Part shown: one piece after another, positions 47,582 to 52,540 of the stretch
Position numbering within the stretch: position 1 is the first letter of the stretch
Layout of the letters: every line of letters begins with the position of its first letter
Origin: Halococcoides cellulosivorans
GTDB taxonomy: Archaea > Halobacteriota > Halobacteria > Halobacteriales > Haloarculaceae
Reading direction: 5' to 3'
Assembly: GCF_003058365.1 (NCBI RefSeq)
Contig: NZ_CP028858.1
Span: 1,736,001 to 1,800,000 of the forward strand
DNA: 64,000 nt
The notes under the pieces: generated by a model
What the model was told of the DNA's origin: nothing
The model's input: only the letters and a program-made list of their open reading frames with translations
Databases searched by the model: none
Position numbers and translations under genes: made by a program

Positions 47582-47653
47582 GGGCTCGTAGATCAGTGGT
47601 AGATCATCCCCCTGGCACGGGGAAGGCCCCGGGTTCAAATCCCGGCGAGTCCA
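47582..47653 (+). tRNA. tRNA-Ala (anticodon GGC)
   Basis: A 72-base cloverleaf: acceptor GGGCTCG pairs with CGAGTCC (one G-U pair), anticodon stem TCCCC/GGGGA carries loop CTGGCAC, and the T-arm is CCGGG TTCAAAT CCCGG. The discriminator is A. The anticodon GGC reads GCC and GCU alanine codons. Its 3' half from 47632 is the left attachment site of the element that follows; the tRNA itself is intact. Confidence 0.96.
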
Positions 47654-47730
47654 CTCGGCTCACTTCGTTCGCCTCGTTCCCTCGCCGACCTTCGCAAAAT
47701 CGAAGATTTTGCTCAGTCCCGGCGAGTCCA
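47632..47730 (+). repeat. Left attachment repeat (attL), overlapping tRNA-Ala
   Basis: The first 33 bases (47632-47664, starting GGTTCAAATCCCGGCGAGTC) are identical to 51820-51852. Beyond them, TCGTTCCCTCGCCGACCTTC (47674) and GCTCAGTCCCGGCGAGTCCA (47711) also recur at the right end with few changes. A perfect hairpin with an 8-bp stem and GAA loop is at 47694-47712. Confidence 0.9.
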
Positions 47731-48073
47731 TTCGGCTGACGCCGCATCAGCAATCGACACACGGCGTCGGCATCCGACACCTCCTTTATGCCCGTTCCCG
47801 AGAGTTTGAGCGGTCAGTCCGTGCGTCTTGCCGGCTCCAATGGGAGAGGTCGCCTCTCCCGGGTCCGAGCCGTATGGTGGTCGTCACAATTGATTCGTTG
47901 TAGCCGACATATAGAGATTCGGGTACCCAGTTCGCTGTAGCAATTGAAGAATACAGCGGGAAGACGGCCGGAGGACGAGAGAATGGGATTAGAACATCAA
48001 TTGATTCGGCCATTGCTACGGTAACGCAACTCGGTCAAAATATTTTTTGCAGATTTCATCCGCGCGGTAGGCG
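47731..48073. other. Left-end non-coding stretch of the element
   Basis: Between attL and the operon's last gene I see no gene. A possible 75-codon frame on the minus strand (47786-48013) has no protein-like features and no promoter. The last 60 bases are AT-rich and may hold the operon terminator. Confidence 0.5.
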
Positions 48074-48337
48074 TCATGGTGCCGTTGGATTTCTATATTT
48101 AATATAGTAGTCAACATAATCGAGGTCGGATGGATGGGATTCCGCCAACCGAAAGACACCATCAGGGTGTTCATGCATTTGGGTCAGTTCGTAGGCAATG
48201 TTCGATGCCTCCACCTCATCGATGTCCTGTAAGATTATTGTCCCATCTCTACGGCCTGTCTGAATCCCATTTAATAAATCAGTCTCGCCAATCTGGGAAT
48301 AGAAGATAGCTCGTCGCGTTATCTTGACACGGCTCAT
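48074..48337 (-). CDS. Small protein, third gene of the element operon
   Basis: The ATG at 48337 lies one base after the stop of the Abi_C/HEPN-like gene and gives 87 residues; a longer in-frame start would overlap that gene by 77 bases and is less likely. It begins MSRVKITRRAIFYSQIG, basic at first, then acidic, with a predicted mix of two or three strands and helices and a closing segment DLDYVDYYIKYRNP. No family is recognised. Its position suggests a role with the two larger proteins, for example as an immunity or accessory subunit; that is inference. Confidence 0.65.
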   Translation of the reverse strand: MSRVKITRRAIFYSQIGETDLLNGIQTGRRDGTIILQDIDEVEASNIAYELTQMHEHPDGVFRLAESHPSDLDYVDYYIKYRNPTAP

Positions 48338-48338
48338 C

Positions 48339-49313
48339 TTAGAGAATTTGGCGGTGCTCTTTGACACAGTAGTAAATGCTCCGGACAAACGATATTGATG
48401 AGAGGATGACCTCAAGGGCGACCTCAGAATCTACCTGCCACGATTCTAAGGTTTCAGATTCTTTCCCGTGGGCTCCCGGAATACGCATAGCCCCCAGATA
48501 ATTGGCACCGTGTAGATGACGTTTTAAGATTAGTCCGTCTCCGCGCATCATGTTTGCTAAGCTCCCAATGCCATTTGCACGAGTGTAGTCTGAATCAGAG
48601 TCTCCTTCTTCTGTCGCTAATTCACGCGTTATGTTTTCTGCCGCAACGACGGCATCCACAATGGCGCTATCCGGAGATTCTTCGTATGATAGGAGCGCCT
48701 CTTGGAACTTCTCCACACTCTCTTCTTCTGCGTACGCAATTACGTCGCCACCTAATTTTTTGTGGACGAACAAGCGGGCTTTCGCCTCTGACAGGAGGGC
48801 ATCTTGGAGGTCCTTAACATAATCAGTCGGAAGAGTCTCGACCTCGATTGTCGGAACTAAGTCCTCGTCGTCCTCAAGAAGGTCCGACTCTTCACCGATG
48901 CTCAAAAACTGCTTCTTAATGACGTCAACAGACGTGTCCATCTCATAAAGCGTTTTCACAGACTGAGCTGACCGCTCTGCATCAAATCCCTTGTCGAGAA
49001 AGGATAAAAACGTCATAAATGGACTATATCGCTGTGCGTATCGGTTCAAGAGGACAAACCCTTGTTCTGGACTCATCTTTCGGGCTTCTTCTTCCACGTC
49101 GGGAGATGCGCTAAACGACCCATCATTCTCGACAAGAAGACCGAGTTCGAGTCCAAGTTGAATAACGGCCGCTGTGTACGCCTCGCTCATATCGATAATC
49201 TCAGCAATGTCTTCGGTGTCCAACGGCCGAGGCGAAGTTGCAAGGCCAATGACGACCTCGATTAGTGGCTCAGGTTTTACCGCTCGGGAGTGTAGATAGT
49301 AATCCTCATTCAT
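48339..49313 (-). CDS. Winged-helix protein with Abi_C/HEPN-like C-terminus
   Basis: The protein has 324 residues. The first 75 look like a winged helix (LIEVVIGLATSPRPLDTEDIAEIIDMSEAYTAAVI, read as helix-turn-helix). A helical middle follows. The last 120 residues resemble the abortive-infection C-terminal (Abi_C) group: GIGSLANMMRGDGLILKRHL, then MRIPGAHG with arginine 277 and histidine 282 in an R-x4-H spacing like HEPN ribonucleases, and a closing hydrophobic helix. If real, the domain could cleave RNA on viral infection. It starts inside the stop of the upstream gene (ATGA) and is followed by the third gene after one base. The family link is from pattern memory and needs a profile search. 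Confidence 0.75.
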   Translation of the reverse strand: MNEDYYLHSRAVKPEPLIEVVIGLATSPRPLDTEDIAEIIDMSEAYTAAVIQLGLELGLLVENDGSFSASPDVEEEARKMSPEQGFVLLNRYAQRYSPFMTFLSFLDKGFDAERSAQSVKTLYEMDTSVDVIKKQFLSIGEESDLLEDDEDLVPTIEVETLPTDYVKDLQDALLSEAKARLFVHKKLGGDVIAYAEEESVEKFQEALLSYEESPDSAIVDAVVAAENITRELATEEGDSDSDYTRANGIGSLANMMRGDGLILKRHLHGANYLGAMRIPGAHGKESETLESWQVDSEVALEVILSSISFVRSIYYCVKEHRQIL

Positions 49314-50149
49314 CTGTCTTCGTAACTGGTGAGCGTCCGGTGTCCCTCCGATTCCCCATTTTCAGAGGGCGTTTGAGGCTCGGGAACTTCAGCCTCCAGA
49401 CCCTCCCGAACAGCTATTATTAGTTTCTTTACGTTTTCAGGACCTTCATCTCCGGATAAGTCTAAATTGATTGAGAATTGTCCCTCCTTCAATATTTTAC
49501 TCGCAGATGGTTCCTCTTGCGGGTATACACGGACCTCCTCTTCCTGACCATCCACAGACGGTTCTGACTCAGGGGATTGGTCTTGTCTCTCTTCCTTCTC
49601 GTCAGCTATTTCCTCTGTTTGCTTAGTTTCCACCGAGTCACTCTGGCGCTGAGTATCAGCAATTCGGTAGTTACCCCCCTCTGTTTCTATCAGGATACCA
49701 GTCCAAACGAATAGGTCAACGAGGGCCGCAAGTCCAGTCTTTTTCCGAGGAGTTGATGGGTCTGTCTCAGTGATAAATGCAAGCGAATCTATAACTTCAT
49801 CTTTGACCAGCTCACCTGAGCCGATATCGTTAATGAGTTCCTCAGTCACCTCCCACTCATCAAGCAAATCCCTGAGCCCCTCAGCCGCTTCGCCCTCTCG
49901 GTCAAATGCGAGTGCACGGCCTATGTTGTTCCCTGCTTGTAGAAGTCGATAGTCGTGGCCCTCCTTAGAAAGAAGCCCAACATCTGCGAAAAACTTCTTC
50001 TGCCTTCTAATGACGTCCGAACTTGACTCTATCTCTTCCTCCACATCCTCGTCCTCTACCAATTCATCAGTGTCGGCGGCTTCGTAGTATCCCTCGATAA
50101 TCTCCTGTAGCGTGTCGAGACTCGCTTTGGGAACTGGGTGATTTGGCAT
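49310..50149 (-). CDS. DUF5343-like winged-helix protein, first gene of the element operon
   Basis: The ATG at 50149 gives 279 residues beginning MPNHPVPKASLDTLQEIIEG. An AT box 30 bases upstream supports this start over the ATG at 50188. Residues about 1-85 fit a DUF5343-type winged helix (RRQKKFFADVGLLSKEGHDYRLLQAGNNIGRAL, read as helix plus wing). A second winged-helix-like unit spans about 85-170. An acidic, glutamine-rich linker (about 172-225) leads to a short alpha/beta end with FSINLDLSGDEGPENVKKLI. It may be the DNA- or ligand-sensing part of the operon. Its stop overlaps the next gene's start. Confidence 0.75.
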   Translation of the reverse strand: MPNHPVPKASLDTLQEIIEGYYEAADTDELVEDEDVEEEIESSSDVIRRQKKFFADVGLLSKEGHDYRLLQAGNNIGRALAFDREGEAAEGLRDLLDEWEVTEELINDIGSGELVKDEVIDSLAFITETDPSTPRKKTGLAALVDLFVWTGILIETEGGNYRIADTQRQSDSVETKQTEEIADEKEERQDQSPESEPSVDGQEEEVRVYPQEEPSASKILKEGQFSINLDLSGDEGPENVKKLIIAVREGLEAEVPEPQTPSENGESEGHRTLTSYEDR

Positions 50150-50177: not shown

Positions 50178-50184
50178 GATAAAA
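50178..50184 (-). promoter_or_regulatory. TATA-like box for the element operon
   Basis: On the minus strand TTTTATC is centred about 32 bases before the ATG at 50149, the spacing of haloarchaeal leaderless promoters. It lies inside the possible N-terminal extension from the ATG at 50188, so it argues against that earlier start. Confidence 0.5.
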
Positions 50185-50728: not shown

Positions 50729-51739
50729 TTACAGGTCTTCGAGGTACCGCCGACGGGTGTCCATCTGTTCGGCCTTGTTCCGTCGGTCGTAGTGGGCGTC
50801 GAGTACCTCACGGCTCACGTTCATCCGCTCCGAGGCGACGTCCTTCGGCTTCCCGAGGTTGAGCATGTGGGTTATCGCACCCTTCCGCAGTGCATGAGGG
50901 GACACCGAGGATGGGCACTTGCTTGCCGTGTTGTAATCGCCAGCTTCGCAGGTGTCCGGTGACCGGTCATGTGGACACTGGGCACCGAAGTGGCACGGTC
51001 AAGTGACTGTGTAGATGTTCCGCTGAAGCGTGGTTTTCGCCGGCCGGCCGCTTCCCGTTGAAAACAGTGGCTCGCGCCCGTAGTCGTCAAGGCAGCCAGA
51101 CCTGTGCATGTCTACGAAGTCGCTCAGGACGTCGCAGAGGTCGTCCTTGATGTAGACGTCACGTTCACCGTTTGCTTTGTTCTTGAGCGGCGTGCCTGTC
51201 TCAGGGCGGTGTCGGAGCATGAGCGTGTTCCGGTCCGGGTCGAAGTCTCCGAGGTCGAGTGACCGGAGTGAGCCACTCCGCATGCCAGTGTGCCAGAGGG
51301 TGTAGAACACCGCGTGTCGAAATGAGGCATACTCGTACTTGTTCAGGTACTCCAGCATAGCGTCTGCTTCCTCGGAGGTGATGTACGTCTCGTTCACCTC
51401 GTCGGCGGTGGACACCTCGGGCACGGCGACCTTCTCGTTGAGTCCCGCACGGACTGCGTCAATCTTCTTGCAGAACCGGAGGAACTTCTTTAGATTCCAG
51501 AGGTTGCCCCGGAGGGTCACCTGCTTAACTTCCTCGGCGCGGTCCATCCGGAAGTTTATCACTGTGCGCCCGGTCACGTCGTTCATGTTGTCGATGCCTT
51601 CCTGTTGGCACCAGTCGGTAAACGCCGCGAGGTCGTACTTGTAGTTCTGTAGGCTATTCTTGGACAGCTCGTTTTCGCGGCTGGTCAGGTACATCTCTAC
51701 AGCGCGGTCCGGTGCAATCGGGTCGAGTTGGTCCGTCAT
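50729..51739 (-). pseudogene. Tyrosine recombinase (integrase) gene with in-frame TGA
   Basis: The frame from the ATG at 51739 encodes an XerC/D-type integrase but meets TGA at 50999-51001 after residue 246. Reading on in the same frame gives 88 more residues to TAA at 50729-50731, with the expected C-terminus: a cysteine-rich insert (PCHFGAQC), SPHALRKGAITHML with the H-x-L-R residues, and the tyrosine in DAHYDRRNK. The N-terminal part has the SAM-like core-binding domain and the first catalytic arginine in WHTGMRSGSLRSL. A single C-to-T change in a CGA arginine codon explains the stop. The truncated product lacks the catalytic tyrosine. It lies next to the right attachment site. Confidence 0.88.
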
Positions 51740-52059
51740 GGTGGTTTGCTCCTGTAGACAACCACCATCACAGCCCGAGCATCAGCCGGAGCGGCGAGCG
51801 GAGCGAGCCGCAGGCCTCCGGTTCAAATCCCGGCGAGTCCACTCGGCTCACTGCGTTCGCTCAGTCGTTCCCTCGCCGACCTTCGCGAAGCCTTCGGCTT
51901 CGCTCAGTCCCGGTGAGTCCATCGGAGCGACCGAGTTTTACGAGGGAGCGAGAATGGACGAGCCGAGCGTAAGCGCAGCGAACGCGTGGATTTTGAAAAC
52001 GAATCCGCGTCGGCCTGGCCAAACTGTTAAGACTGTCAGTGCTGTACGTTCTGGTAGCA
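51740..52059. other. Intergenic region holding attR and TA-pair promoter
   Basis: The region between the integrase start and the toxin-antitoxin pair holds the right attachment repeat (51820-51921). It also holds a GC-rich stretch of no clear content and an AT box (GTTAAGA near 52027) about 30 bases before the antitoxin ATG. No other gene is visible. Confidence 0.6.
51820..51921 (+). repeat. Right attachment repeat (attR)
   Basis: Bases 51820-51852 are identical to the tRNA-Ala 3' end and its flank (47632-47664). The next 70 bases match the left flank with changes and one short insertion. A perfect 8-bp hairpin with loop TTC at 51885-51903 takes the place of the left end's hairpin with different stem sequence. 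Confidence 0.9.
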
Positions 52060-52254
52060 ATGTCAGCCGACAAGCGGATCCCCGTCACCGAGGAAACCCG
52101 GAAAGAGCTTCACGACCTCAAGGAGCCAGGGCAGACGTACGACGATCTACTCCAGGAGTTGGCTCAACAGCGACGACGAGAAGACCTCGAACAGCGGTTT
52201 CAAGACCTCGAAGACGCTGACAGTGACGAGTTGACGGCGCTCGACGATGTCTGA
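52060..52254 (+). CDS. Antitoxin-like protein of a RelE-type pair
   Basis: The ATG at 52060 gives 64 residues; a start at 52039 is possible but weaker. The N-terminal half (MSADKRIPVTEETRKELHDLKEPGQTYDDLLQEL, read as strand, helix, helix) fits small haloarchaeal VapB/RelB-like antitoxins that bind DNA as dimers. The acidic C-terminal tail would wrap the toxin. Its stop lies inside the first codons of the toxin gene (8-base overlap), so they are co-translated. The pair probably autoregulates its own promoter. Confidence 0.8.
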   Translation: MSADKRIPVTEETRKELHDLKEPGQTYDDLLQELAQQRRREDLEQRFQDLEDADSDELTALDDV

Positions 52255-52540
52255 ATACGATGTCCTCCTCGGCGACGACGCCAGCGCCTTTCTCGATGCC
52301 GCCGACGAAAAGACCGAGCGGATTTGTACGGAAAAACTGTCGTTTCTGACGGAAAACCCCTATCCGGGTCGCGGCCAGGGTGACAAAGAGAAACTCCCGA
52401 TCGATGGCCGTCGCGACCGGTTTCGATTGCACATCTCCCGGAGCTACACCGCGATCTACACCGTCCTGGAGGACGCGGGTGAGGTTCGAGTCCTCGAAAT
52501 CGTCCCGATCGACGAGGCGCACAAGCGGTATGGGTTTTGA
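52247..52540 (+). CDS. RelE/ParE-family toxin
   Basis: The 97-residue protein has the RelE fold pattern: a first strand (MSEYDVLLGDDA), two helices (AFLDAADEKTERICTEKLSFL), a loop with NPYPGRGQGDKEKL, then strands RRDRFRLHISRSYTAIYTVL and VRVLEIVPIDEAHKRYGF. RelE toxins cut mRNA on the ribosome. Basic residues at the usual positions (R in RDRFRLH, K and R near the end) are present. It is coupled to the antitoxin gene. The pair lies just outside attR and may be left from an earlier insertion. Confidence 0.88.
   Translation: MSEYDVLLGDDASAFLDAADEKTERICTEKLSFLTENPYPGRGQGDKEKLPIDGRRDRFRLHISRSYTAIYTVLEDAGEVRVLEIVPIDEAHKRYGF

What the first reader, a model, noticed from the sequence alone, without database searches (positions are those of the whole stretch)
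48074..50149. Three-gene operon with DUF5343-like, Abi_C/HEPN-like and small protein: candidate anti-viral system
Three minus-strand genes overlap or lie one base apart (ATGA overlap, then a 1-base gap) and follow one AT box. The middle protein joins a winged helix to a C-terminus with R277-x4-H282 and a hydrophobic closing helix, resembling Abi_C/HEPN domains of abortive-infection proteins. The first protein has two winged-helix-like units and an alpha/beta tail, plausible as a sensor. Location on an integrated element with little else fits a cargo defence cassette. I know of no described haloarchaeal system with this gene order.
Basis: partly seen in the sequence, partly recalled or inferred. 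Interest (0 to 1): 0.8.

Follow-up and report, generated by a model that had tools for sequence, protein, structure and literature searches.

The report
Haloarchaeal wHTH–HEPN two-gene defence candidate

Summary
P2 (48339-49313, 324 aa) has nine full-length homologues, itself included, each from a different haloarchaeal genus. R277, H282 and a second HEPN motif (E226-x3-R230) are invariant in all nine. A model of its C-terminus (pLDDT 88, pTM 0.85) finds only HEPN structures among its 16 best PDB matches. Profile comparison ties it to the AbiJ/Abi_C HEPN group, although no Pfam cut-off is passed.

All nine P2 genes sit beside a P1-type gene (winged-helix unit, linker, short C-terminal tail). 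P3 has no relative in the other P2 genomes or in the phage, plasmid and viral collections searched.

The window copy lies in a 4.2-kb element between tRNA-Ala end repeats, next to a tyrosine integrase with one premature stop. Three relatives lie in similar integrase/tRNA elements; one element holds only integrase, P1 and P2. Another copy lies beside a type I CRISPR-cas locus. In two loci P1 is damaged while P2 is intact, which argues against P1 as a strict antitoxin.

Best reading: a mobile abortive-infection-type module, P1 regulator/sensor plus P2 HEPN RNase. Defence activity is untested.

The parts
49310..50149 (-). P1, 279 aa: N-terminal winged-helix-like unit, middle unit, low-complexity acidic linker, short C-terminal tail (GQFSINLDLSGDEGPENVKKLIIAVREGL)
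   Evidence: a P1-type gene lies beside P2 in all nine loci; clade A and clade B P1 profiles match, hhalign probability 89, E 2.1e-6
48339..49313 (-). P2, 324 aa: N-terminal winged helix (about 14-69), helical middle (71-142), C-terminal HEPN domain (about 163-324) with E226-x3-R230 and R277-x4-H282
48342..48836 (-). HEPN domain of P2 as modelled on its own
   Evidence: AlphaFold2 pLDDT 88.4, pTM 0.85; Foldseek PDB ranks 1-16 are all HEPN proteins
48074..48337 (-). P3, 87 aa ORF one base after P2; no homologue found; probably not part of the core module
50180..50184 (-). TTTTA box, possible TATA element 31-35 nt before the P1 start
   Evidence: read from sequence; promoter function inferred
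50729..51739 (-). Tyrosine integrase with one in-frame TGA at codon 247 (246 aa, remainder of the frame open)
   Evidence: 46% identical over the first 244 aa to the integrase of the L016 element
47582..47654 (+). tRNA-Ala (GGC), insertion site
47624..47731 (.). Left repeat (tRNA-Ala 3' end plus downstream bases)
51812..51922 (.). Right repeat

Best explanation
The feature is a mobile two-gene module, P1-P2, carried here by a 4.2-kb integrative element in tRNA-Ala. P2 is a divergent AbiJ/Abi_C-type HEPN ribonuclease joined to an N-terminal winged-helix unit; P1 is a winged-helix partner with a flexible linker and a conserved C-terminal tail. I propose that P1 and P2 form a complex that is quiet in healthy cells; P1 (and perhaps the P2 winged helix) senses invading DNA, a virus protein or a stalled process; and P2 then cuts RNA through the R277/H282 active site, so that the infected cell stops growth before virus release. 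Shown here: gene order, co-occurrence, HEPN fold prediction, motif conservation, mobility context. Inferred: RNase activity, complex formation, the trigger and the antiviral outcome.
For: HEPN effector: R277, H282, E226 and R230 are among 22 invariant columns in nine sequences, the other eight being 24-68% identical to P2, matching the Rx4-6H and Ex3[KR] motifs described for HEPN domains (PMC3710099). The C-terminal model has pTM 0.85, and its 16 best PDB matches are all HEPN proteins (AF0298, HepT, TT1696, Csm6, TM0613). The best viral-library match is an RNase LS-like protein. hhalign against Abi_C-type proteins gives E 2.2e-5, with none of 200 column-shuffled controls reaching its score. 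Partnership: a P1-type gene adjoins P2 in all nine loci, with overlap or at most about 10 nt spacing when co-directed. Cargo and defence context: integrase plus tRNA-end repeats in four of nine loci, one element being only integrase + P1 + P2; one copy next to a CRISPR array with cas1, cas2, cas4, cas6, cas7 and a Cas8-like gene; patchy distribution, nine genomes with a full-length P2 of 394.
Against: No defence phenotype is known. Foldseek E-values are weak (best 0.068), so the fold call rests on the consistency of the hits. No Pfam, PADLOC, NCBIfam or PHROGs model reaches threshold for P2. In the window copy and its nearest relative the residue after the catalytic R is Ile instead of the usual N/D/H, and the spacer is one residue shorter than in the other seven, so this subclade may be less active. 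Only one of nine copies is next to a known defence locus. P1 has no fold model, and nothing shows that it binds P2.
Confidence: 0.55

Rival explanations
1. Toxin-antitoxin or addiction module: P2 is a HEPN RNase toxin, and P1 is an antitoxin and autorepressor that keeps the small element in its host.
For: HEPN toxins are common in two-gene modules (HepT/MntA; hits). The upstream gene carries a winged helix and overlaps the toxin gene, as antitoxin-repressors often do. The pair rides on small mobile elements.
Against: In L014 P1 has an in-frame stop at codon 163, and in L015 P1 lacks its 5' part, yet P2 is intact in both; a free toxin should be selected against. No MNT partner exists. P1 (279-506 aa) is large for an antitoxin. 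In L017 and L020 the P1-type gene is on the other strand.
Confidence: 0.22
2. P1-P2 serve the element itself (excision, copy control or replication) and not the host.
For: Winged-helix proteins are common excision and replication regulators; elements made of only integrase + P1 + P2 exist.
Against: P1-P2 also occur beside a CRISPR-cas locus and on a 331-kb plasmid without the integrase next to them. A HEPN domain with both motifs conserved is not expected for these tasks.
Confidence: 0.1
3. P2 has a HEPN fold but is no longer a nuclease in this subclade and acts as a regulator or RNA-binding protein.
For: Ile after R and a shortened loop in the window copy and L012; low model confidence in that loop.
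Against: R, H, E and R stay invariant across all nine, and x4 spacing is within the described Rx4-6H range.
Confidence: 0.1

Closest known systems
AbiJ-type HEPN proteins (Pfam Abi_C PF14355; NCBI 'STM4504/CBY_0614 family')
   Same: C-terminal HEPN with E-x3-[KR] and RN..(G)HG motifs behind a variable N-terminal domain; found on plasmids and other mobile DNA
   Different: P2 does not pass the Pfam cut-off, its N-terminus is a winged helix plus a helical unit instead of AbiJ-NTD1-5, and it has a conserved partner gene P1. AbiJ is listed as bacterial in PMC3710099
HEPN/MNT (HepT/MntA) toxin-antitoxin
   Same: Two-gene module with a HEPN RNase; structures among the best fold matches
   Different: No nucleotidyltransferase partner; P1 is a winged-helix-like protein
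Archaeal HEPN proteins such as AF0298 (2hsb)
   Same: Best fold match (TM 0.54 by query length, 0.68 by target length)
   Different: Stand-alone small HEPN protein with a different active site as described in PMC3710099
Widespread haloarchaeal P1-like proteins (24 of 295 genomes)
   Same: N-terminal ~175 aa and the C-terminal tail resemble P1
   Different: Often several hundred residues long with Ala/Glu-rich linkers; no function known, and no association with P2 was seen or tested for them

Membership tests
HEPN superfamily | Helical-bundle HEPN fold | tested here: met
   C-terminal model pTM 0.85; top 16 PDB matches all HEPN, TM up to 0.68 by target length, E-values weak
HEPN superfamily | Rx4-6H motif | tested here: met
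   R277-x4-H282 in the window; invariant in all nine, spacer 4 or 5
HEPN superfamily | Polar residue (N, D, H) right after the R | tested here: not met
   Ile in the window copy and L012; Asn in the other seven. Described as typical, not obligatory
HEPN superfamily | Second motif Ex3[KR] | tested here: met
   E226-x3-R230 invariant in all nine
HEPN superfamily | RNase activity | not testable with these tools
   needs biochemistry
Abi_C (PF14355) | Score above Pfam gathering cut-off | tested here: not met
   Best is L017 C-terminus, E 0.11, 13.1 bits against cut-off 24
Abi_C (PF14355) | Profile similarity to bona fide members over the motif region | tested here: met
   hhalign probability 76, E 2.2e-5; 0 of 200 shuffles reach the score
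HEPN/MNT toxin-antitoxin | MNT nucleotidyltransferase partner | tested here: not met
   P1 has no such domain
DUF5343 (PF17278) for P1 | Pfam match | tested here: not met
   No match at E up to 10 in four P1 proteins. The family also rang nowhere in 59 haloarchaeal genomes or the controls, so that search says little
Three-gene operon P1-P2-P3 | All three genes kept together elsewhere | tested here: not met
   P1-P2 in nine of nine loci; P3 in the window only
Known anti-phage systems (PADLOC-DB 2.0) | Any model matched | tested here: not met
   No family for P1, P2 or P3

The most novel reading that the evidence does not exclude
An undescribed archaeal abortive-infection system in which a winged-helix partner (P1), itself drawn from a widespread haloarchaeal protein family, switches on an AbiJ-like HEPN RNase (P2), and which travels as the sole cargo of tiny tRNA-targeting integrative elements, in some lineages with an added XPB-like helicase.
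Probability: 0.45. Interest if true: 0.72.

Novelty: new variant of a known kind. Interest (0 to 1): 0.55.

Why it matters
I found no described HEPN abortive-infection module in haloarchaea in the papers searched. If P1-P2 defends, it would give a compact two-gene system with a built-in mutational test (R277, H282) in organisms that can be handled genetically, and would show that minimal integrase-plus-defence elements circulate among archaea.

Tried and rejected
Direct searches of P1-P3 in Pfam, PADLOC, NCBIfam and PHROGs gave no usable match. The search for related loci with P2 alone found no relatives in genome contigs; the mixed alignment had no stretch conserved enough to search with; viral contigs gave none. 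A Foldseek search of full-length P2 was swamped by its winged helix, so the C-terminus was modelled alone. Sequence search of the PDB with the P2 profiles gave only chance-level hits, e.g. calmodulin. Homology of the P2 N-terminus to P1 was tested: scores exceed all 200 shuffles but probability is only 8-14%, and winged helices are alike anyway, so it is left open. P3 as a system member was rejected for lack of any homologue. Pfam Abi_C in 118 haloarchaeal genomes gave nothing; one member of the phylum outside the order supplied the seed for the Abi_C comparison.

Full report
WHAT IS THERE. P1 is 49310-50149, P2 is 48339-49313 (ATGA overlap) and P3 is 48074-48337 (one base gap). A TTTTA box lies 31-35 nt before the P1 start; that it is a TATA box is inference.

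THE ELEMENT. tRNA-Ala(GGC) is at 47582-47654. Its 3' end and downstream bases are repeated at 51812-51922 (94% and 83% identity over 49 and 58 nt). Between the repeats G+C is about 0.49 over the operon, against 0.60-0.75 around it. The element is about 4.2 kb and holds a tyrosine integrase. The integrase has one in-frame TGA at codon 247; the frame is otherwise open to its end near 50729. The element is therefore probably no longer mobile by itself.

HOMOLOGUES. P2 has full-length relatives in eight other haloarchaeal genomes of 394 sampled (68 to 24% identity to P2) and one C-terminal fragment (L019). Wider draws in two families added no more. Some hosts are named by other tools: Haladaptatus sp. 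QDMS2 (a 331-kb plasmid), and Halorubrum sp. Boch-26, Halovenus aranensis and Halonotius aquaticus. No relative was found in phage records, other plasmids or viral contigs.

P2 IS A HEPN PROTEIN. In the nine-sequence alignment 22 columns are invariant, among them E226, R230, R277, G280, H282 and G283. These include the two motifs described for HEPN domains, Ex3[KR] and Rx4-6H (PMC3710099). The full-length model (pLDDT 79.7, pTM 0.50) shows a winged helix (14-69), a helical middle and a C-terminal helical bundle, with R277 at the end of helix 264-277 and the closing helix at 296-319. The C-terminus alone models well (pLDDT 88.4, pTM 0.85; the loop after R277 stays below 50). Its first 16 PDB matches are all HEPN proteins: AF0298, HepT of MntA-HepT, TT1696, Csm6 and TM0613. 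Each E-value is weak (0.068 at best), so it is the consistency that counts. The top viral-library match is an RNase LS-like protein.

WHICH HEPN. No Pfam family passes its cut-off; one homologue matches Abi_C at E 0.11 and another DUF7014 at 0.023, both across the R..H region. An Abi_C member above the cut-off was found elsewhere in the phylum and used to collect five more from bacterial plasmids, named 'STM4504/CBY_0614 family' in most annotated cases. hhalign of the two profiles gives probability 76, E 2.2e-5, with E-x3-[KR] and RN..HG in register; none of 200 column shuffles reached the score. CBY_0614 is the AbiJ-NTD4 example in PMC3710099. P2 is thus AbiJ/Abi_C-like but not a Pfam member. 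One caution: the window copy and L012 have Ile after the R and a spacer of four; the other seven have Asn and five.

THE PARTNER. In all nine loci a P1-type gene is next to P2 (genes in these loci were called by my own script). In the window, L012 and L013 it is a clade-A P1; in L014, L015, L016 and L018 a clade-B P1; in L017 and L020 a 506-aa protein with a P1-like second unit, on the other strand. Clade A and B profiles are related (probability 89, E 2.1e-6, 0 of 200 shuffles). Co-directed pairs overlap or lie 0-10 nt apart. P1-like N-termini and tails also occur in long stand-alone proteins in 24 of 295 genomes, so P1 was probably recruited from a common haloarchaeal family. In L013 and L020 an XPB-like helicase (67% identical between them) precedes the module. 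P3 has no relative in these genomes or in plasmids, phages or viral contigs.

WHERE IT TRAVELS. L014: integrase, P1 and P2 only, between 60-nt tRNA-Gly repeats (6621 and 10329). L016: tRNA-Ala(GGC) repeats, the same site as the window, with an integrase 46% identical to the window's. L018: a complete second tRNA-Ser copy and an integrase. L013: next to a CRISPR array with cas1, cas2, cas4, cas6, cas7 and a TM1802-type gene. L020: a plasmid with an ArdC-like gene nearby. L019: a P2 fragment about 165 nt from a tRNA-Thr.

MECHANISM. A HEPN RNase effector with a winged-helix partner on defence-like mobile DNA is best read as an abortive-infection-type module. A classical antitoxin role for P1 is made less likely by L014, where P1 has an in-frame stop at codon 163, and L015, where P1 lacks its 5' part, with P2 intact in both. 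Caveats: both are draft assemblies, a P1 fragment may suffice, and P2 could be silent. P1 as activator or sensor fits these losses better, but its trigger is unknown.

NOVELTY. HEPN effectors of abortive infection are a known kind. The winged-helix–HEPN architecture, the conserved P1 partner and the haloarchaeal setting were not found in the libraries or papers searched. I rate it a new variant of a known kind.

Noticed in passing
window 52039-52540 (+): Overlapping pair of small genes (71 and 97 aa) about 120 nt outside the right repeat that looks like a toxin-antitoxin pair; the first scores just under the Pfam VAPB_antitox cut-off.
   Followed up: partly
window 50729-51739 (-): Tyrosine integrase with a single in-frame TGA at codon 247; 46% identical over 244 aa to the integrase of the L016 element, which uses the same tRNA-Ala(GGC) site.
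   Followed up: yes
L013 6331-8214 (+) and L020 8045-9937 (+): XPB/RAD25-like helicases (the L020 one with an N-terminal HTH), 67% identical, directly before the P1-P2 or P2 gene in two families; possibly an extra subunit of one lineage.
   Followed up: partly
L037, L041, L042, L045, L046, L047, L048 (+): Widespread haloarchaeal proteins with a P1-like N-terminus, very long Ala/Glu-rich linkers and, where the end is held, a P1-like C-terminal tail; function unknown.
   Followed up: partly
L013 9972-10811 (-): A second P1-like gene (279 aa, 26% identical) converges on P2, between the module and a CRISPR array.
   Followed up: no
L014 8137-8988 (+): P1 interrupted by an in-frame stop while the following P2 is intact.
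   Followed up: yes
L019 8908-9147 (+): C-terminal P2 fragment close to a tRNA-Thr, probably the remnant of a lost element.
   Followed up: no
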